From Planctomycetales bacterium (GTDB lineage Bacteria > Planctomycetota > Planctomycetia > Isosphaerales > Isosphaeraceae), in contig DAIDHX010000301.1 in the NCBI GenBank assembly GCA_027451885.1, positions 1 through 64,000 on the forward strand: 64,000 nt of DNA. Reading direction: 5' to 3'. Positions 2-9,147 of the stretch are shown piece by piece (positions within the stretch are counted from its first letter, which is position 1; each line of letters starts with the position of its first letter). The notes under the pieces were generated by a model, which was not told the DNA's origin, searched no databases, and saw nothing but the letters and a program-made list of their open reading frames with translations. A program made the translations under genes and the position numbers.

Positions 2-904
2 ATGGACTTCAGCGGTTCGGGGGCGCTCGAGGTGCGTTATTTGCAGGGTCCGACCGGGATCCTGGCGCGGGAGTCCGCGAGCGGTGTGATCGCGTGGTAT
101 CTGTCCGACCGGCTGGGCACGGTGTCGGACGTCATTGACAACTTGGGGAACGTGATCGACCACGTGGATTACACGGCGTTTGGGTCGGTGATCGACGAGA
201 CCGCGCCGGGCGCGGGGGATCGGTTCGTGAGCTTCGCGGGGCTTGTCCGCGACAACGTCACGGGCCTGAACCTGGCGATCGAGCGTGCGGAAAACCCCAC
301 GATCGGCCGCTGGACGCAGCAGGATCCGCTCTCCTTCGCCGCCGGGGATGCGAACCTGTATCGGTATGTGGGGAATGGGGCATCAGAGCATTCAGACCCG
401 TACGGGACGAGTCCCTACAGCGTCCTGGCTGTTCTCGAGACGGGTATGGTTGGTCCAGACGGGCCAGGTCGAAAACGCCCCATTCCACCTGCGCCTCCTC
501 TTACCAGGCGGAGGCGCCGCAACGCGGATCCAACGCCCCCTGGGTCGGTCGGCGGTAATCCGAATGACCGTAGGGGCTTACCATATCGTAACTTCTGCCG
601 AACCAATCCCGTCGCTCATCGCACGCCGCCAACGTCCTATTTCCATCGATATAAGGAATACAACCATCCACCTAATTTCGGCCCAAATGGAAATTTTCCA
701 CCCAGTCTCGGAATGGGGCCTCCGAAGATCGAGATCTCTCCGTTCGATGGCCCTGTGGTCAGGCCAGGCGACCCCATCAAAAACCCTACTCCGAGTCCCC
801 CGAGGCGTCGAAATGGAGGCCCAGCCGCTGGTCCTGGTCTCGGGCCCATCTTCGGCAATCCACCCGTCCCCGGCACACGCGTCCCGCCTGATCGACCAAG
901 CTAA
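2..904 (+). CDS. RHS-repeat protein, C-terminal part (5' end outside window)
   Basis: This is the 3' end of a large RHS/YD-repeat gene; the reading frame is open to the window edge, so the ATG at 2 need not be the start. Residues about 30-135 are the RHS-associated core: an S-D-x-L-G-T-V segment, a D-Y-x-x-F-G segment, then I-G-R-W-T-Q-Q-D-P-L and N-L-Y-R-Y-V-G-N leading to D-P-Y-G. In this family the core ends a secreted shell that often carries a variable C-terminal tip, commonly a toxin. The tip here (about 136-300) is rich in proline, arginine and glycine, and I recognise no nuclease, deaminase or protease motif in it. It may be an inert or unknown tip. No recognisable immunity gene follows; the next genes are 23-residue repeat proteins. 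Confidence 0.85.
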   Translation: MDFSGSGALEVRYLQGPTGILARESASGVIAWYLSDRLGTVSDVIDNLGNVIDHVDYTAFGSVIDETAPGAGDRFVSFAGLVRDNVTGLNLAIERAENPTIGRWTQQDPLSFAAGDANLYRYVGNGASEHSDPYGTSPYSVLAVLETGMVGPDGPGRKRPIPPAPPLTRRRRRNADPTPPGSVGGNPNDRRGLPYRNFCRTNPVAHRTPPTSYFHRYKEYNHPPNFGPNGNFPPSLGMGPPKIEISPFDGPVVRPGDPIKNPTPSPPRRRNGGPAAGPGLGPIFGNPPVPGTRVPPDRPS

Positions 905-1022
905 ATGGGGATGACGTCCTTCGAACACGGATCACCTGGAGCCTGGGTTTCAAGAAGATCGATCGAGATTCCTTTCGGCGTGAGGTCTACTTGATTCTCC
1001 GAATAACGATTGGAGCATGCCG

Positions 1023-1955
1023 ATGATCAATCAGCATCCGGGCCGGGGCCATGCCTGCATCTGGTCCAGGCTTGTCTCCCTGATGGATGTCTGCACCGTG
1101 ATTGTGGTCTCCTTGATCGTTCTGTTTGCTTTGAACACAAGTCGACGACCAGCCGTTCCGCTCGAGCTCGAAGCGACAGGTCTCAGCGTCGTCGACGCCA
1201 CGAGGCAGGAAAGAGGGTTCATCGGACCCATGGAGGACGATTCGTTTGGTTTGTCGTTGAGCGATGGGGCCGGGCGAGATGCGGCTGCTTTCCTTACATA
1301 CCCGAATGGAGTGTGTTGCCTCTCCCTGTCGGAGGGAAAAGAGGATCTGATTCGAATGGTGATTGGCACCGACGCATTTCCATACCTGGAACTCAAGTCG
1401 ATCGGTGCCAGGCAGAAGGTATGGGTCGGCGAAACCGATTCCGCCCCGGGACGGCCGACGGGGCGCCTTGTTCTTTCTGGAAGTCAGGATAAATCTGGAA
1501 GGCTGGAAATCTCGGTTGAGGAAGACCAATCATTTCTGTTCATCGGAGATCATCTGGGGATTCATGAGCACATCTGCCTCAGCCCCAACGAGATGGGCAC
1601 TTCTACCTTTTGCGTGCACGGAGGCGCGTTAGCTCGAAAGGTTGGTCTCGGCGATCAGAGCGGCGACCTTGGGCTTGCGCTCTGGCGTGAGCAGGGACCC
1701 CTCGAGTTCGGGGTCCTACTTGATCCTCAGGGAGATCCGTTTTGGTACGACTGGGCCGCGAAGCAGCTTTGGGGGGATTTAACTCGTCGCGGATGTCTTA
1801 CAGATTTCCCGTTTTTTCAACGCCAGCCGCGCGAGCGTCTTGCTCCTGGGATAGATCTCAGATCGCGGATAGAACCACTGGCCAGCGAGCCGGACCCGAG
1901 GTTTCGCGAGACACCTTCTACAGATTTACATGAGAGCAACTCATATGTTCGTTGA
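1023..1955 (+). CDS. Membrane-anchored 23-residue-repeat protein, divergent member
   Basis: Function unknown. An N-terminal hydrophobic helix (about residues 18-38, V-C-T-V-I-V-V-S-L-I-V-L-F) is followed by an extracytoplasmic region. It opens with an E-L-E-A-T-G-L-S-V-V-D stretch, like the start of the repeat region in the next gene. The first three units keep the spacing of about 23 residues with hydrophobic positions 1 and 3 and D/E near 5. Later units are irregular and hard to set in register. ATG 1023 is preferred to ATG 1017 because GGAG at 1012-1015 is 7 bases from 1023 but only 1 from 1017. The 3' end overlaps the start of the following paralog by 26 bases, which suggests translational coupling. 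I infer a cell-envelope role only from the anchor. Confidence 0.75.
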   Translation: MINQHPGRGHACIWSRLVSLMDVCTVIVVSLIVLFALNTSRRPAVPLELEATGLSVVDATRQERGFIGPMEDDSFGLSLSDGAGRDAAAFLTYPNGVCCLSLSEGKEDLIRMVIGTDAFPYLELKSIGARQKVWVGETDSAPGRPTGRLVLSGSQDKSGRLEISVEEDQSFLFIGDHLGIHEHICLSPNEMGTSTFCVHGGALARKVGLGDQSGDLGLALWREQGPLEFGVLLDPQGDPFWYDWAAKQLWGDLTRRGCLTDFPFFQRQPRERLAPGIDLRSRIEPLASEPDPRFRETPSTDLHESNSYVR

Positions 1956-2730
1956 GTTTCCGAATCAGCCCCCCCGCTCCAGATTCCTTGCGAAGCTCAG
2001 CCTGATGCTAAGGTCCGCGTTCTTGACGGCGCTGATCTCATTGCTGATGGGGTCGCGTTCAGATGACAAGAGCGCACCGGCCAGGGAGCTTGAGGCGCAG
2101 CGTTTTGTCGTGAAGGACGCGGCGGGGCGTGCGCGATCGGTGTTTGGTGTAGGCCCGGAGGGAAGCGTCTCGCTGGAGCTTTTTGATGCCAGGGGCGTGG
2201 CTCGCGGGTGGATGACGGCTCCCGAAAAAGGCGGTGTGGCATTTAGCCTTGCTGACGAGAACCAAACGGTCAGGCTCTGGCTCTGTATCGACTCAAAGCA
2301 AGAACCCTACATCATTCTCAGGGGCGCTGACGGCACCAGGCGACTGATGCTAACCTGCGAAAGGGACGGTGCAGAGGATGTGGCCTCGATCCATCTCCTG
2401 AATAAGAAGGAAGAAGATCAACTCGTTCTCGTCGCTGGTTCAGATGGCAAGGCTTATCTACAAGCCTACGGCGCTCAGGCCAACGGCTCGTATGTCACGG
2501 TCGGGACGGACGACAAGTCGCCGCCGCGAATCGAAATCAGAGACCCGTCCCAGCAAAGAGTCGTCGTCCTGGGCGAGATGGCAGCGGCCTCGAATTTCGG
2601 CCTGACGCTCCGTGACGCCAACGGACCCAGGATCACGCTCGGTTTCAATGGCTCGGGCAAACCGTCGCTTCAGTTCCCGAGTCCACCTCCCAAACCGAAT
2701 GGACACCCATCGCTCGTGTCTACTAAGTAG
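1930..2730 (+). CDS. Exported 23-residue-repeat protein
   Basis: Function unknown. A basic N-terminus and a hydrophobic segment (about residues 22-41) look like a signal peptide or anchor. The rest is about eight units of roughly 23 residues (lengths counted 23, 23, 23, 26, 23, 24, 24, 22). Each starts with alternating hydrophobic residues, then D or N, then G near position 8, a second pair of hydrophobic residues, and often G near position 20. This pattern suggests stacked short beta strands, perhaps a beta solenoid; that is inference. The start overlaps the previous gene by 26 bases. ATG 1945 is also possible and neither start has a strong ribosome site. It is closely related in plan to the genes at 1023, 7228 and 8161. 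Confidence 0.8.
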   Translation: MRATHMFVEFPNQPPRSRFLAKLSLMLRSAFLTALISLLMGSRSDDKSAPARELEAQRFVVKDAAGRARSVFGVGPEGSVSLELFDARGVARGWMTAPEKGGVAFSLADENQTVRLWLCIDSKQEPYIILRGADGTRRLMLTCERDGAEDVASIHLLNKKEEDQLVLVAGSDGKAYLQAYGAQANGSYVTVGTDDKSPPRIEIRDPSQQRVVVLGEMAAASNFGLTLRDANGPRITLGFNGSGKPSLQFPSPPPKPNGHPSLVSTK

Positions 2731-3551: not shown

Positions 3552-4604
3552 CTAAGACGTCGGCTCTTGTGTTCGAGTTTGGAATTCCCGCAGCCGTGTC
3601 CACTGGATCAGATGATTTAGATTTTCGAGTGTGAACACCTTACCCTGCGTCGCCAGCAGCAGTTTCTTCATGTCCTCACGCCGTACCTTAAAGCCGCGTC
3701 CGGCGATGCAGGCGATGACCTCGAAACGTGGCGGCTCACCTGGCTTGACATCCATCAGGCTCAACGCCCTCAGGTGCTGCACGCGAGTTACCTTGTCGCG
3801 GGCCGTGCCGTCGTCCTCGGTAACTTTGGCTTCGATGACGACCTGGGGGCTGAACTCATCGGGCACGATGAAATCAGGTGCCTGATCGAATCCGCTCACC
3901 CGCTCCGCCCGCTTGGTTTTCCGGAAGCTTACGCCGGATCGGGTCAGCACGCCCTCGATGGCCGTCTCGACCACATCGCCGACCAACTCGCTGACGGAAT
4001 CGCGGTGCCCGGCGAACGGTCGGCCCAGGAAACGCTCATACAGCACCATCGCATAGGGCACGCCGAGATCGGCCATCGGCCGGATGCTGGCCAGCCCGTT
4101 GCGGGTATCGGCCTTGTCCATCCTGTGCAGCACATCCTTCGGCACTTTCGGCACACCCTCCTTCAGAAGCTCGCAGGCGGTGTTGACCAACGCACGCAAC
4201 CGCTGGTCAGTGACCTGGCTCAACGTCCCCAATGGCGTCAGTGGTTGCATGCGAATCTTGCGGTCAAGCGAGCGGACAGCCCCTTGCGTGACTTCCACCC
4301 CGGCACGCTGGCCGGTGACGTAGGCCCATTCCGGAGGCGTGAAGCCGAGCACTGCCCGCAGCACGACGAACGCCACTGGAACGCGGCTAATCACATCGAG
4401 CACAGCGGCCGGAGTGATATTTCGGAAATTCACAGTCCCCTTTTTTAGTTCCTCATATCCCCGCTCAAACACCGGGTATTCGACAAAGCCCGGTCCTTTG
4501 GGCAGCGTCAGGAACTCCGATCGGAGGCACGCGAACACTGAATCCACATATGTGTCTAATTCTTCCTGAAGTTGCTCGAACGGAACCTCAAAGGGAAACG
4601 GCAT
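3552..4604 (-). CDS. Putative type II restriction endonuclease, PD-(D/E)XK fold
   Basis: A 350-residue protein read directly after a DNA methyltransferase. Near residues 243-260 it has P-D-F-I-V-P, then V-V-I-E-A-K-V-T. This is the spacing of a PD-(D/E)XK nuclease core (D about 244, E 258, K 260), followed by a D-K-V-T-R-V-Q-H-L helix. No ATPase or helicase motif is present, which fits a stand-alone type II enzyme; its recognition site cannot be read from sequence. ATG 4604 is chosen because AGGA lies 8 bases upstream; the frame is also open to ATGs at 4613 and 4646. It overlaps the methyltransferase stop by 17 bases, so the pair is probably co-translated. A modification-linked nuclease of another type cannot be excluded. 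Confidence 0.7.
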   Translation of the reverse strand: MPFPFEVPFEQLQEELDTYVDSVFACLRSEFLTLPKGPGFVEYPVFERGYEELKKGTVNFRNITPAAVLDVISRVPVAFVVLRAVLGFTPPEWAYVTGQRAGVEVTQGAVRSLDRKIRMQPLTPLGTLSQVTDQRLRALVNTACELLKEGVPKVPKDVLHRMDKADTRNGLASIRPMADLGVPYAMVLYERFLGRPFAGHRDSVSELVGDVVETAIEGVLTRSGVSFRKTKRAERVSGFDQAPDFIVPDEFSPQVVIEAKVTEDDGTARDKVTRVQHLRALSLMDVKPGEPPRFEVIACIAGRGFKVRREDMKKLLLATQGKVFTLENLNHLIQWTRLREFQTRTQEPTS

Positions 4605-6774
4605 CGCGGTCATCCTGCGGAAAAAGCTGCATCTGGCGTGGAACACCCGAGAATGTCGGTGCCGCGACCAGGTGATCTATCAGCCACTGAGCGTCGCCAA
4701 GTGAGGCGAACATGCGGGCAAAGCGTTCGAGGCGGGCCGATGCGGGCAGAGTGCCTTCCCAGTTTTGCCGCAGTCGTCCAATCGCATAACGGGCCAGGTG
4801 CCCAAACACCATGCAGCGAATATCACCCGCCGTCGGCTTCATTCCGGCCTTCCGCAGCATCGACAGTTCGGCCTGCATCACCGTCTCTAGCTCTCCCAGT
4901 GAGCCGAATGCCTGCCCCGGCCGCGTGCATCCCTGCGTCCGGCAAACGAATATCGTATCCACAATCGACGATCCAGTGCCGTGGATGTGGATGGAGCCGC
5001 CCATTTCAGCGGGACAAGGAAGCGTTGCCAGGCAAATCAGACCCGCATCGAGGATTGCCACGCCCACGGAGTGATAGGGTTCGATCCGGTTATGATGGAA
5101 AGTGAAGGCGAGCGGAGCGCCCGGCTTCAAAGCCCGCGACATGGCCCGCCACACGGCGGCTAGCCCATCGGTGAAATGCTCGATGCCGCGTGCTTGCGTC
5201 GCGTTGCCCGTCAGCTCCTCTGGAGCCCGCGACGATGGTAGGAGGAAGCCCTCGGTTTCCTCCCCCACCAACCGACGCAGCCAGACATAGCAGAAATCCA
5301 TCAACTCACCGTATTGGACGTTCCCGAAGTACGGTGGGTCTGTAAACACCGCATCCAGGCTCGATGGCAGCAGGTTTGCAGTGGTCGAACTGGCACAACG
5401 TAGCGTCACTGACCGCGTCGCAGAACCACTTCTCCTCTCGCCGATCCATTCGCCGTGTACAGGCACTGTCGTTTTGCGGCGGCCATCATGACGAACTTCA
5501 AAAGGCGCGTCGCAATAGCGCTTGGCCCGCGTGTATTTCTCGATTATGTTGGTCCAGCCGCCAGAGCCAACATTGGCCCCGTTGCCGTTGACAATGCCCA
5601 GCAGGTTCGACTCGCATTCCACCAGCCCGACCGGGAAGCCGTGGACCGAGAAAATGTCCAATGACTTCAGTGCGGTCGTGTCATAGCGGCAGAGCATATT
5701 CTGATAGCGCAGCAAGTCCGAAAGATTGGTCGCCAGAGCGTGCCGCACCCGTTCATCTCCCGTCTCAGCAATCTGACGGCAGCTCAGTTCTAGTCCCAAG
5801 AGCTGCCGCTCGTTGAATAACTCCCTGTAGAATCGGTATCCCCAGCGGTGCAGCCGATCGGTTTCGTCGCCTGGCAGGATTTCCTGATGCGGAACGAAGG
5901 TCGGAGACATGGATCGCCAGCGGCGAGTGACCGCCTCTACCTGCTTCAAATCATTAGCGTCGGGCTTCTTGAAAAACCGGCCTTTATGCCGCCCGTGATG
6001 CTTGGGATTGAAATACTCAATTGCGAACAGACGATGAAGTGGCGGACCCTGATCGGGTCGAGCATACGCGTTGTCGGCCCCGCAATGCGGGCAGGCACAG
6101 CGGCCCCGCTTGGCAGGGCCCTCGATCACCAAGGCACTGGCGCAGCCGAAGCATTGGCCCGGATGTCGCGCGTCGGCCACTTCGTTCAATTCGCCGCAGA
6201 CGGAGCAGACCAAGACATTGGCGGAGTGGCGGGTATCGTCAGCCAGGAGGTAGCCGGGAAACAAGTCGATTTGCTGGCCGCATTGATGGCAATCGACCAC
6301 TTTCACCCACAAGAAATACTTCACGGGAACGCCCGTATCGCCGTAACGCGGGCAGTCTGTTCGGTATGCCGCTCCGATCTCTTGTTGAAGGCGGGCCAGT
6401 AGCCCGGCAGATGCCTTGCGATAAGCTTCCAGATCGAGATGGCCGACCTCCTCGCGGACGATCCATGTCGCCATTGGGTTGATGTCGAACCCAACTATGT
6501 CGCAGCCGACGCGGTTGGCTTCGATCAACGGCGTTCCGCCGCCCATGAACGGGTCGGCAATGACGCGGCCCGAAAAATCGTTCGCCTCAAAGTAGGATTC
6601 CGTCAGCGGACGGTTGCCGAACTCGGCGAGGATCAGCCCCCTAAACAACGTGCCCGGCCGCCGGGCAAACCACTTGTGCACGGCGATGATCGGACGGTAG
6701 TTCTGTTGAATCTGCTTCTCTTTGAGTGCCAGCGAAGCGATCAAGCTTATATCAAAGTCGTTTTCAATGTTCAT
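4588..6774 (-). CDS. DNA methyltransferase with zinc ribbons, COG1743/DUF1156-like
   Basis: A 728-residue S-adenosylmethionine-dependent DNA methylase, most likely N6-adenine. The N-terminus has an H-K-W-F-A-R-R-P segment (about 33-40), then the cofactor motif D-P-F-M-G-G-G-T (about 74-81) followed by D-I-V-G-F-D-I-N-P. The catalytic T-D-P-P-Y is near residue 480. Between them are four C-x-x-C pairs (about 162-231) making zinc ribbons, as in the adenine-specific methylases grouped as COG1743. Motif order (cofactor first, DPPY later) is of the alpha type. The start could be ATG 6774 or GTG 6789; both have weak ribosome sites. It is the first gene of a two-gene restriction-modification operon with the nuclease at 3552-4604. 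Flanking genes on both sides belong to one repeat-protein family, which suggests the system was inserted there. Confidence 0.85.
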   Translation of the reverse strand: MNIENDFDISLIASLALKEKQIQQNYRPIIAVHKWFARRPGTLFRGLILAEFGNRPLTESYFEANDFSGRVIADPFMGGGTPLIEANRVGCDIVGFDINPMATWIVREEVGHLDLEAYRKASAGLLARLQQEIGAAYRTDCPRYGDTGVPVKYFLWVKVVDCHQCGQQIDLFPGYLLADDTRHSANVLVCSVCGELNEVADARHPGQCFGCASALVIEGPAKRGRCACPHCGADNAYARPDQGPPLHRLFAIEYFNPKHHGRHKGRFFKKPDANDLKQVEAVTRRWRSMSPTFVPHQEILPGDETDRLHRWGYRFYRELFNERQLLGLELSCRQIAETGDERVRHALATNLSDLLRYQNMLCRYDTTALKSLDIFSVHGFPVGLVECESNLLGIVNGNGANVGSGGWTNIIEKYTRAKRYCDAPFEVRHDGRRKTTVPVHGEWIGERRSGSATRSVTLRCASSTTANLLPSSLDAVFTDPPYFGNVQYGELMDFCYVWLRRLVGEETEGFLLPSSRAPEELTGNATQARGIEHFTDGLAAVWRAMSRALKPGAPLAFTFHHNRIEPYHSVGVAILDAGLICLATLPCPAEMGGSIHIHGTGSSIVDTIFVCRTQGCTRPGQAFGSLGELETVMQAELSMLRKAGMKPTAGDIRCMVFGHLARYAIGRLRQNWEGTLPASARLERFARMFASLGDAQWLIDHLVAAPTFSGVPRQMQLFPQDDRDAVSL

Positions 6775-6827
6775 GTCATCTTTTTTCACTGAATCGGCGT
6801 GGCACGGCCCTGCCGCGAGGCGACCCT

Positions 6828-6884: not shown

Positions 6885-7227
6885 GGTTCTCGGCTTATTT
6901 TTGCTTTCCTATTCTCCCAGACAGTCCGGTCGTTCGAACCCTGCGGGGCTGTCGGAGAAGAGAGCAAAAGAAAAGAAGGCAAAAGAAGACACCCCAGAAC
7001 GGCGGAGAAGAAAGACGCAGAAGAAGACACACAAGGAGCCGGCTGGTGCGCTCGGCCTGGCCCGCGGAGAATCGGCCTGGCTTCTTCTGACCCTTCGTCA
7101 TCACATCTTGCCCATCGCAACCCGCAAGGAAAGCATTCCCGGGAGCAACCCCTGGTAAAGGGACATCGAAGAATGAAGAATTGTGACGGAAAGAATTGCA
7201 CCCACTGATCGTCAAGGAGTTCGATCG
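6885..7227. other. Gene-free stretch with purine-rich tract
   Basis: Roughly 340 bases precede the repeat gene at 7228. Positions about 6952-7035 are almost all A and G on the + strand, with repeated AAG and GAAG triplets. A frame running through it would give a lysine/arginine-rich low-complexity peptide that I do not believe is a gene. No terminal inverted repeats marking a mobile element edge were seen. Confidence 0.4.
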
Positions 7228-8157
7228 ATGCGACGCTCAACTGTTTCGGTGGCCGTGATCGCGACCGCTGTCCTGATCGCGTTTCGTCTGGGTAGTGCTC
7301 AGGCGAGGCAAGAGAAGCCGGCGCAGGAGCTGTCTGTGCAAGGGCTCAACCTGGTCGACGGACAGGGCCGGGTGATGGGGAGCTTGAGGCTCACGGAGAA
7401 GGGAGATCCGGTACTCGAGTTCATGAATCGCGATGGTAAGAAGGTTGCGGTGATGGCGGTCGACCCAGGCGGAGGGGCGCGCTTCTCGCTGAACGGACCG
7501 CGAGGCGACAGGAGGTTTTCGGTGGGTGTGAGCGAGGACGGCGAGTCGAGCCTCCGGATTCATGATGGCAAGGGGCAAGAGGTTTACAGGATTCTGGCGA
7601 CGGCCCGGGGAGCTGTGCGGCAAGAACTTCTGGATCGTGATGGAGCAGTACGCATTCGCTCCAGCGTGACTGAGGACGGCTGGGCCGAGCATGCGCTTTA
7701 CCACGAAAAAGGCGTTGCCGGATACGAAACGCGCGTGAGCCGGGCGGGCGAGGTCTTGCAGACCTTCCGTGATCGTACGGGGAAGCCCAGACTGGGGATT
7801 GGCATGAGCGCGAAGAATGAGGCCAGGCTGGATCTCTTCGACGCAGGAGGGAAACGGCGAGGAGGAATGCGCGCTGAGCCGGGCGGGCGCAGCGAGCTCA
7901 CCCTGGCCGATGATTCCGGGCGCTCGAGGGCGGCTCTGAGCGTCGACGGTGACGGGGCTCCCTCCATCCGAATGTGGAATCGGGATGGGATCGAAACGGT
8001 TGTGCTTTCCAGTCTCGAGACCGGCTTCAGCGGGCTCCGGCTGACGGATTCCCAGGGAGCGGCGTCCGTTCGATTGGGCGTGGACGAGCATGGGCAGCCC
8101 GCGCTCAACCTCGCTCCCGTCCTGGAATCCACTCCACAAAACAAGGAAGGTAAGTAA
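7228..8157 (+). CDS. Exported protein made of eleven gapless 23-residue repeats
   Basis: A 309-residue protein of unknown function. ATG 7228 is chosen because AAGGAG lies just upstream and the protein then begins with a signal peptide (M-R-R-S-T-V then a hydrophobic core to A-Q-A). From residue 40 to 292 the chain is exactly eleven 23-residue units without a single insertion. Position 8 is G in all eleven units and position 20 is G in ten. Positions 1, 3, 14 and 16 are mostly hydrophobic, position 5 is usually D or N, and R or K often follow the first G. The regularity suggests a beta solenoid in the periplasm or on the cell surface. It is followed after 3 bases by another family member, so the two are surely co-transcribed. 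Confidence 0.9.
   Translation: MRRSTVSVAVIATAVLIAFRLGSAQARQEKPAQELSVQGLNLVDGQGRVMGSLRLTEKGDPVLEFMNRDGKKVAVMAVDPGGGARFSLNGPRGDRRFSVGVSEDGESSLRIHDGKGQEVYRILATARGAVRQELLDRDGAVRIRSSVTEDGWAEHALYHEKGVAGYETRVSRAGEVLQTFRDRTGKPRLGIGMSAKNEARLDLFDAGGKRRGGMRAEPGGRSELTLADDSGRSRAALSVDGDGAPSIRMWNRDGIETVVLSSLETGFSGLRLTDSQGAASVRLGVDEHGQPALNLAPVLESTPQNKEGK
7345..8103 (+). repeat. Eleven tandem coding repeats of 69 bases
   Basis: In-frame tandem repeat coding for the 23-residue unit described in the gene at 7228-8157. Copies are diverged at DNA and protein level, so the array is old or under diversifying drift, but its length register is perfect over 759 bases. Confidence 0.85.
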
Positions 8158-8160
8158 GAC

Positions 8161-9147
8161 ATGGTGCACTTACCGTATCGCTCTCTGACGAAACGGATGT
8201 CAGCGCTCGCGGAGCCGGGCTTGCTTCTGTTGCTACTCGTGATCGTGGATGCGATTCTCTCCGCCTACCTCGACATGCCGCGCACCCGTGGTGAACAGGC
8301 CGAGAAGGGTGTGATTTCGCTGCGGAGGCTGAGCCTGCGCGACAACCAGGGACGCGACAGGCTCAATCTCGGCGTGGGAGCTTCGGGGGATGCATTTCTT
8401 CAGATCCTGGATGTCTCGGAATTCCCCCTGGTATCGCTCGTCCCTTACCAGACGGGGAACATGATCCTTGGTCTGTCCGATAAGAACGCGAGGAATGGAC
8501 CCGCGCTGGGGATCCGTGAGGACGGCGCGAGTGGCATCTGGTTGGTTACGAACTGGGACACGCTCTATTACGCGCGTTGTGGCGCTGATGGATTCGTCCG
8601 CGAGGTTTTCTGGGACCGGGAATCAAGAGAGCGTGAAGCCCGTGGCGCTGCTCCCAGGGATGGCAGCCATCGTCTTTCCAACCGCATCCTGAGCGACGGC
8701 GAGGTCTTCAGCTCGATCTTCATGGGTACGGGAGGCCGACCCTCCGTCAACCGCATATGTGGAAAGTACAACTATTCGCGCGTGGAACTCCGCTCGCCGG
8801 ATCGGCGCATCGGGCTCGAACTGGGGCTCAACGAGTCCGGTACAGCCTCGCTCGATCTTGGCGACCGTTTTGGCACATTGCGCGCATCCTTTGCGTGCCA
8901 CTCTCTGGGAAACACAACCTTCCGGCTGTTCGACCCGGGAGGCAAGGAACGGCTCTCGCTGGGGTCAGTTGCGACAACCTGGCTTACGCTCCGGGGCCAA
9001 AGTCACGCTCGACCTGTCCTGCTAGGCATGAGAGGCGAGACGGGCGAATGCGCATGTCTGGTGGTGTCCGACGCTCAGGAGACCGAGCAAACCGTGCTCA
9101 GGATTGACCGGCGGTCGGGACCAGCGCTGCTGATGTCCCCACGCTGA
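8161..9147 (+). CDS. Membrane-anchored 23-residue-repeat protein
   Basis: A 328-residue protein of unknown function, second gene of a pair with the eleven-repeat protein 3 bases upstream. A strongly hydrophobic helix (residues about 18-36, G-L-L-L-L-L-L-V-I-V) anchors it. The outside part starts with three regular 23-residue units. Then comes a diverged centre with several tryptophans, tyrosines and cysteines (about residues 115-205), and about five further units of 21-25 residues. The centre may be a distinct inserted domain. The family plan (anchor, linker, repeats) matches the genes at 1023 and 1930. Confidence 0.8.
   Translation: MVHLPYRSLTKRMSALAEPGLLLLLLVIVDAILSAYLDMPRTRGEQAEKGVISLRRLSLRDNQGRDRLNLGVGASGDAFLQILDVSEFPLVSLVPYQTGNMILGLSDKNARNGPALGIREDGASGIWLVTNWDTLYYARCGADGFVREVFWDRESREREARGAAPRDGSHRLSNRILSDGEVFSSIFMGTGGRPSVNRICGKYNYSRVELRSPDRRIGLELGLNESGTASLDLGDRFGTLRASFACHSLGNTTFRLFDPGGKERLSLGSVATTWLTLRGQSHARPVLLGMRGETGECACLVVSDAQETEQTVLRIDRRSGPALLMSPR

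What the first reader, a model, noticed from the sequence alone, without database searches (positions are those of the whole stretch)
7345..8103. Eleven gapless 23-residue repeats fill an exported protein
I counted eleven consecutive units of exactly 23 residues, with Gly at position 8 in all and at position 20 in ten, and alternating hydrophobic residues at 1, 3, 14 and 16. Perfect register with strong sequence divergence means length per turn is selected, as in beta solenoids, and I know no named family with this unit.
Basis: partly seen in the sequence, partly recalled or inferred. Interest (0 to 1): 0.7.

Follow-up and report, generated by a model that had tools for sequence, protein, structure and literature searches.

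The report
Exported single-layer beta-hairpin repeat protein
This exported planctomycete protein is built of eleven 23-residue beta-hairpins that probably line up into one long flat protein sheet, a known but rare shape seen in Borrelia OspA and MORN proteins, here made by a widespread bacterial sequence family that no database I searched has named.

Summary
Eleven gapless 23-residue units fill 7345-8103, with Gly8 in 11/11 and Gly20 in 10/11; the periodicity is far above shuffled sequence, and there is no DNA-level repeat, so the array is old. The solenoid reading is not supported. A confident AlphaFold2 model (mean pLDDT 88) has two short strands per unit, and its best solved matches are engineered OspA single-layer beta-sheets, then RHS shells and MORN1. 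A three-unit family profile aligns without gaps to the 23-residue OspA hairpin. MORN repeats are also 23-residue hairpins, so the geometry is known.

The sequence family is not in Pfam, NCBIfam or PHROGs. It carries a DxxGxxR signature, is multi-copy in Planctomycetota and also occurs in Nitrospirota and an Actinobacteria MAG. Units of 22 residues occur in relatives, so exact length is not strictly fixed.

One sheet face is hydrophobic. The gene is followed 3 nt later by a diverged family member. This genome has five such pairs, and the two closest sets co-duplicated as pairs. I propose an extracytoplasmic amphipathic beta-sheet scaffold whose greasy face is covered by its partner or by itself. 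Several family genes lie just downstream of RHS genes. The function is inferred, not shown.

The parts
7214..7219 (+). AAGGAG ribosome-binding-site-like sequence, 8 nt before ATG 7228
   Evidence: read directly from the sequence
7228..8157 (+). gene of the regular repeat protein (309 aa, ATG start)
   Evidence: ORF list; homologues of nearly full length in frame, 39, 38, 33, 28 and 28% identical
7228..7305 (+). signal-peptide-like N terminus MRRSTVSVAVIATAVLIAFRLGSAQA
   Evidence: sequence inspection; most hydrophobic 17-residue stretch of the ORF lies here; no signal-peptide predictor was available
7345..8103 (+). eleven 23-residue beta-hairpin units (unit k starts at 7345 + 69(k-1))
   Evidence: AlphaFold2 model, two strands per unit
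8104..8154 (+). C-terminal half-unit (one strand, LNLAPV) and disordered tail
   Evidence: last predicted strand at model residues 265-270, then low confidence
8161..9147 (+). partner gene: diverged member of the same repeat family with an N-terminal hydrophobic segment, 3 nt after the stop of the first gene
   Evidence: its model has the same strand rhythm but low confidence, pLDDT 52
1930..2730 (+). third family member in the window (266 aa)
   Evidence: E 2.5e-20
1017..1955 (+). very diverged probable family member between the RHS 3' end and 1930-2730
   Evidence: weak BLASTP matches to family members, E about 1e-4 to 1e-2
2..904 (+). 3' end of an RHS gene (Rhs_assc_core plus variable proline-rich C terminus), context only
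   Evidence: TIGR03696 at G000:C301:170-406, E 1.2e-12, 1.4e-12

Best explanation
The gene at 7228-8157 encodes an exported protein whose eleven 23-residue units are beta-hairpins. Each unit is a strand (positions 1-5), a DxxG turn, a strand (10-17) and a second xDGxP turn. The hairpins follow one another to form a single long antiparallel beta-sheet, one layer thick and of about 23 strands, of the OspA/MORN kind rather than a coiled solenoid. Positions 1, 3, 12, 14 and 16 put the hydrophobic residues on one face; the other face is polar, and a D5/R11 pair probably braces each hairpin. A sheet greasy on one side should not stay alone, so the protein most likely works as a scaffold or interaction surface outside the cytoplasm, with that face covered by the sheet of the partner encoded 3 nt downstream (8161-9147) or by a second copy of itself. 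Shown: the repeat, its sequence family, the pair arrangement and pair co-duplication. Predicted: export, hairpin fold, amphipathic sheet. Inferred: the complex with the partner and the scaffold role.
For: Repeat exact and significant. Model mean pLDDT 88, pTM 0.72, 23 strands with a 6-5-7-5 rhythm. Foldseek: engineered OspA 2fkj E 1.1e-11 TMq 0.63, many further engineered OspA entries, RHS proteins, MORN1 TMt 0.62-0.70; viral MORN proteins. Profile of the six homologues against PDB sequences: OspA 3eex E 3.2e-9; three-unit family profile: 3eex E 1.4e-8, gapless over 68 residues on a 23-residue period. Hydropathy by position: mean +2.5 to +3.4 at 1, 3, 12, 14, 16 and at most +0.2 elsewhere, over 388 units. 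D5 and R11 co-occur in 244 of 388 units (units are not independent). Pairs: five tandem pairs in this genome. The first genes of C2 and C3 are 62% identical and their partners 48%; those of C71 and C303 are 50% and their partners 30%, while partners across these groups are clearly less alike, so the pair was duplicated as a unit.
Against: I saw no coordinates: topology is inferred from strand order and structural matches. The match to PDB sequences is mainly to engineered OspA with idealised tandem hairpins, and such low-complexity beta-repeats can match by convergence. The partner's own model is poor (pLDDT 52), so the proposed two-sheet complex is untested. The partner family is confined mostly to this genome, while the repeat family is widespread without it, so a partner is not required in general.
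Confidence: 0.55

Rival explanations
1. It is a true beta-solenoid: each 23-residue unit is one coil of a right- or left-handed parallel helix.
For: Fixed unit length and alternating hydrophobic residues also fit a two-sheet solenoid; the model gives only strand order, and two strands per unit are compatible with it.
Against: No parallel beta-helix stands out among the top 50 structural matches in either library; the matches are antiparallel hairpin sheets. Gapless sequence match to the OspA 23-residue hairpin. Relatives switch between 22 and 23 residues within one array, easier for a hairpin turn than for a stacked coil.
Confidence: 0.1
2. It belongs to an RHS-linked module: family genes are passengers, accessory or protective partners carried at the 3' ends of RHS genes, perhaps detached relatives of the RHS beta-shell.
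For: In this genome 4 of 8 family loci lie within 10 kb of an Rhs_assc_core, of which there are 11 in 8 contigs; rough binomial P about 3e-5. On C34 and C58 the same RHS C terminus is followed by the same two family genes. In the same-genus genome G294 the family ORF overlaps the RHS 3' end. In Isosphaeraceae bacterium EP7 pEP7_04 a family gene follows a long RHS-core gene, with an IS5 transposase between. RHS shells are the second group of structural matches.
Against: The pairs on C2 and C71 have no RHS nearby, and the window pair is separated from the RHS end by other genes, including a methyltransferase on the other strand. Comparing contig positions, no family gene outside this bacterial family lies within 10 kb of an RHS core. 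In Nitrospirota plasmids a family gene follows CusA/CzcA efflux genes. The P value is approximate and both gene kinds may sit in the same variable islands.
Confidence: 0.2
3. It is a bacterial MORN-repeat protein.
For: Same unit length and hairpin geometry (PMC7725318); MORN1 and viral MORN structural matches.
Against: No match to either Pfam MORN model for the window protein at E up to 10 and only a trivial MORN_2 hit, 13.7 bits against a cut-off of 29.6, in one of seven relatives. The GxG and YEGEW/LxY motifs that define MORN are absent.
Confidence: 0.06
4. It is an inert length spacer or rod between membrane and surface, with no specific partner.
For: Array length varies from about 3 to 23 units across relatives; many relatives have an N-terminal coiled coil and transmembrane segment before the array.
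Against: In this lineage the number of units is fixed at 11 in the paralogues and the individual units keep their own identity; genes are duplicated as pairs; one face is hydrophobic.
Confidence: 0.15

Closest known systems
Borrelia OspA single-layer beta-sheet and engineered OspA with added hairpins (peptide self-assembly mimics, e.g. 2fkj, 3cka, 3eex)
   Same: 23-residue beta-hairpin period, gapless profile match over three units; best structural matches
   Different: In the engineered OspA the sheet is held between two globular caps (PMC3776556); here eleven units have no globular cap. One face here is strongly hydrophobic. No shared gene context.
MORN repeats (PF02493 / PF07661)
   Same: 23-residue beta-hairpin unit, elongated all-beta array, groove or face of apolar residues, dimerisation known (PMC7725318)
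   Different: No GxG or YEGEW/LxY motif, no Pfam MORN match; the signature is LxLxDxxGxxRxxLxVxxDGxPx
RHS/YD repeats
   Same: Beta-hairpin repeats; structural match; gene neighbours in this bacterial family
   Different: No Rhs core or YD match in the protein itself; RHS forms a closed shell, and the global overlay is poor (rmsd 20-32 A)
CPAP TCP domain (G-box)
   Same: Stable open single-layer beta-sheet without globular caps (PMC3776556)
   Different: Eukaryotic centriole protein; both faces hydrated; relation not tested here

Membership tests
Single-layer beta-hairpin sheet of the OspA type (fold class) | two short strands per repeat, antiparallel, one layer | tested here: met
   model strand rhythm and OspA as top structural matches; coordinates not inspected, so strand direction is indirect
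Single-layer beta-hairpin sheet of the OspA type (fold class) | 23-residue hairpin period alignable to OspA | tested here: met
   gapless 68-residue profile match, E 1.4e-8 for the chain
[quoted passage not shown]
   only strands and a tail predicted, no cap domain; one face hydrophobic; no lipobox Cys in the N terminus
MORN repeat | match to Pfam MORN/MORN_2 above cut-off | tested here: not met
MORN repeat | GxG plus YEGEW/LxY motifs | tested here: not met
   position frequencies of 388 units against the definition in PMC7725318
RHS/YD repeat protein | RHS_repeat or Rhs_assc_core match | tested here: not met
   no such hit for the window protein; only sub-threshold RHS hits (14.7 and 21.4 against 27.9 bits) in two relatives
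Beta-solenoid | parallel stacked coils | tested here: inconclusive
   no beta-helix stands out among top matches, but contacts of the model could not be read

The most novel reading that the evidence does not exclude
An unnamed, widespread bacterial family builds long, uncapped, natural single-layer beta-sheets with one greasy face, which act in pairs as two-sheet secreted assemblies and, in Isosphaeraceae, travel with RHS C-terminal cassettes as part of a contact or interaction system.
Probability: 0.2. Interest if true: 0.6.

Novelty: new variant of a known kind. Interest (0 to 1): 0.4.

Why it matters
Long single-layer beta-sheets without a hydrophobic core are rare and are studied mostly in engineered OspA as models of amyloid-like sheets. 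A large natural family using the same 23-residue hairpin, with arrays of about 3 to 23 units and 22/23-residue variants, would supply many natural sequences for learning what makes such sheets stable and soluble. It also gives a name-worthy family to many 'hypothetical proteins' of Planctomycetota.

Tried and rejected
Antisense reading: a 310-aa ORF lies on the minus strand over the whole gene (7237-8169), but the plus frame is the one conserved in paralogues, so I rejected it. My first reading of relatives ignored strand and was redone. Pfam DUF7846 and NCBIfam UrcA hits are below cut-off and were discarded. No phage relatives. Literature searches for a description of the repeat or of RHS in Isosphaeraceae gave nothing useful. 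A C-terminal D..G...[WF].AP cap is common in relatives (15 of 51) but absent from the window protein. The second structure job, on the partner, gave a low-confidence model, so no fold search was made with it. The sigma-70 promoter scan upstream found nothing.

Full report
Observation. Translation of 7345-8103 falls into eleven 23-residue units with no gap, Gly at position 8 in all and at position 20 in ten. Lag-23, -46 and -69 similarity is far above 1000 shuffles. The gene starts at ATG 7228 behind AAGGAG, begins with a signal-peptide-like stretch, and ends with a half-unit and a short tail. There is no DNA-level tandem repeat, and five homologues (four in the same genome, one in a same-genus genome) align along the whole array almost without gaps at 27-39% identity, so the array is old and fixed at eleven.

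Family. Pfam, NCBIfam and PHROGs have no family above cut-off, nor do Pfam and NCBIfam for the relatives tested. Yet the repeat is common: it is found in 31 of 294 sampled genomes of the phylum at E 1e-5, in 16 of 30 close relatives with a three-unit profile, and in roughly fifteen genes of this genome. Isosphaeraceae is the likely family of the window: a relative's contig (G315:C5, 33977 bases) matches a plasmid of Isosphaeraceae bacterium EP7 in length and position. True members also occur in Candidatus Manganitrophus plasmids (Nitrospirota) and an Actinobacteria MAG. The consensus of 388 units is LxLxDxxGKxRAxLGVxxDGxPx. Arrays have about 3 to 23 units. Four relatives use 22-residue units and many spacings of 45 imply a 22/23 mix, so the length is preferred, not fixed.

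Fold. AlphaFold2 on the mature protein with five homologues gives mean pLDDT 88 and 23 short strands in a 6-5-7-5 rhythm. Foldseek against the PDB puts engineered OspA first (2fkj, E 1.1e-11), then RHS shells and MORN1; viral matches are mostly MORN proteins. By sequence alone, the profile of six homologues finds OspA 3eex at 3.2e-9, and the three-unit family profile aligns without a gap over 68 residues of the 23-residue tandem hairpin of engineered OspA. MORN repeats are likewise 23-residue hairpins, two 6-residue strands with 5- and 6-residue loops (PMC7725318). I therefore read the protein as a single-layer antiparallel beta-sheet of successive hairpins, not as a solenoid. I could not view coordinates, so the strand direction is inferred from these matches.

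Chemistry of the sheet. Over 388 units the mean hydropathy is +2.5 to +3.4 at positions 1, 3, 12, 14 and 16 and at most about +0.2 elsewhere. These positions alternate so as to lie on one face, leaving the other polar. D5 and R11 occur together in 244 of 388 units, a likely brace across the hairpin. In the window protein, units 5-7 break the rule at position 1 (Q, H, Q), and the homologues also have mostly polar residues there, which marks a special middle segment. In contrast to the CPAP TCP sheet, where both faces are hydrated (PMC3776556), this sheet is amphipathic and should need a cover.

Partner and context. Three nucleotides downstream starts a second, diverged family member (8161-9147). 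The same order, regular gene then diverged partner, occurs at five loci. Identities show that the pair was duplicated together: C2/C3 62% and 48%, C71/C303 50% and 30%. This is the main reason to propose that the two proteins work together. The partner's own model is poor (pLDDT 52) though with the same strand rhythm, and the partner type is nearly confined to this genome.

RHS linkage. Four of eight family loci in this genome lie within 10 kb of one of 11 Rhs_assc_core matches (approximate P 3e-5). On C34 and C58 the same RHS C terminus is followed by the same two family genes. In G294 the family ORF overlaps the RHS 3' end, and on the EP7 plasmid a family gene follows an RHS-core gene with an IS5 transposase between. 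The window itself begins in an RHS 3' end (2-904) followed by two family members (1017-1955 weak, 1930-2730). But the pairs on C2 and C71 lack RHS, and outside this bacterial family I saw no linkage when comparing. In Nitrospirota plasmids a family gene follows CusA/CzcA efflux genes. So RHS linkage is a local habit, not a property of the family.

Verdict. Known fold kind, unnamed and widespread sequence family, natural amphipathic and uncapped version: a new variant of a known kind. The fold reading is fairly safe; the function as a two-protein or self-paired extracytoplasmic scaffold is an inference that can be tested directly.

Noticed in passing
window 2-904: 3' end of an RHS gene with conserved core end and a proline-rich variable C terminus; the contig starts inside it. 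Contig C3 carries three such RHS 3' cassettes with different C termini (L090 4152-5423, 8851-9780, 10548-11375).
   Followed up: partly
window 3552-6789, minus strand: Methyltransferase related to the DUF1156 anti-phage methyltransferase (NCBIfam 6.9e-29 but far below cut-off; PADLOC 1.2e-23) and an unannotated 364-aa neighbour that might be a restriction-type partner; possible defence unit lying between two sets of repeat-family genes.
   Followed up: partly
L090 (C3) about 7800-8000 and L092 (C71) about 10430, degenerate traces at window 6970-7040: Arrays of a roughly 28-bp unit containing GTGGGTGTCTTGTTCTGGCC upstream of the regular repeat genes; 23 matches in the genome, on only four contigs (C3, C71, C29, C138).
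   Followed up: partly
window 7237-8169, minus strand: A 310-aa open frame lies antisense to almost the whole gene; probably a by-product of base composition.
   Followed up: no
L041 (G303:C4): A relative with 23 nearly uniform 23-residue units (YDPDGVRRINLGTFSDGEASQDF type), apparently a recent expansion, about 4 kb from an RHS core.
   Followed up: partly
L100 and L101 (Candidatus Manganitrophus plasmids): Family genes directly downstream of CusA/CzcA metal-efflux genes, annotated hypothetical.
   Followed up: partly
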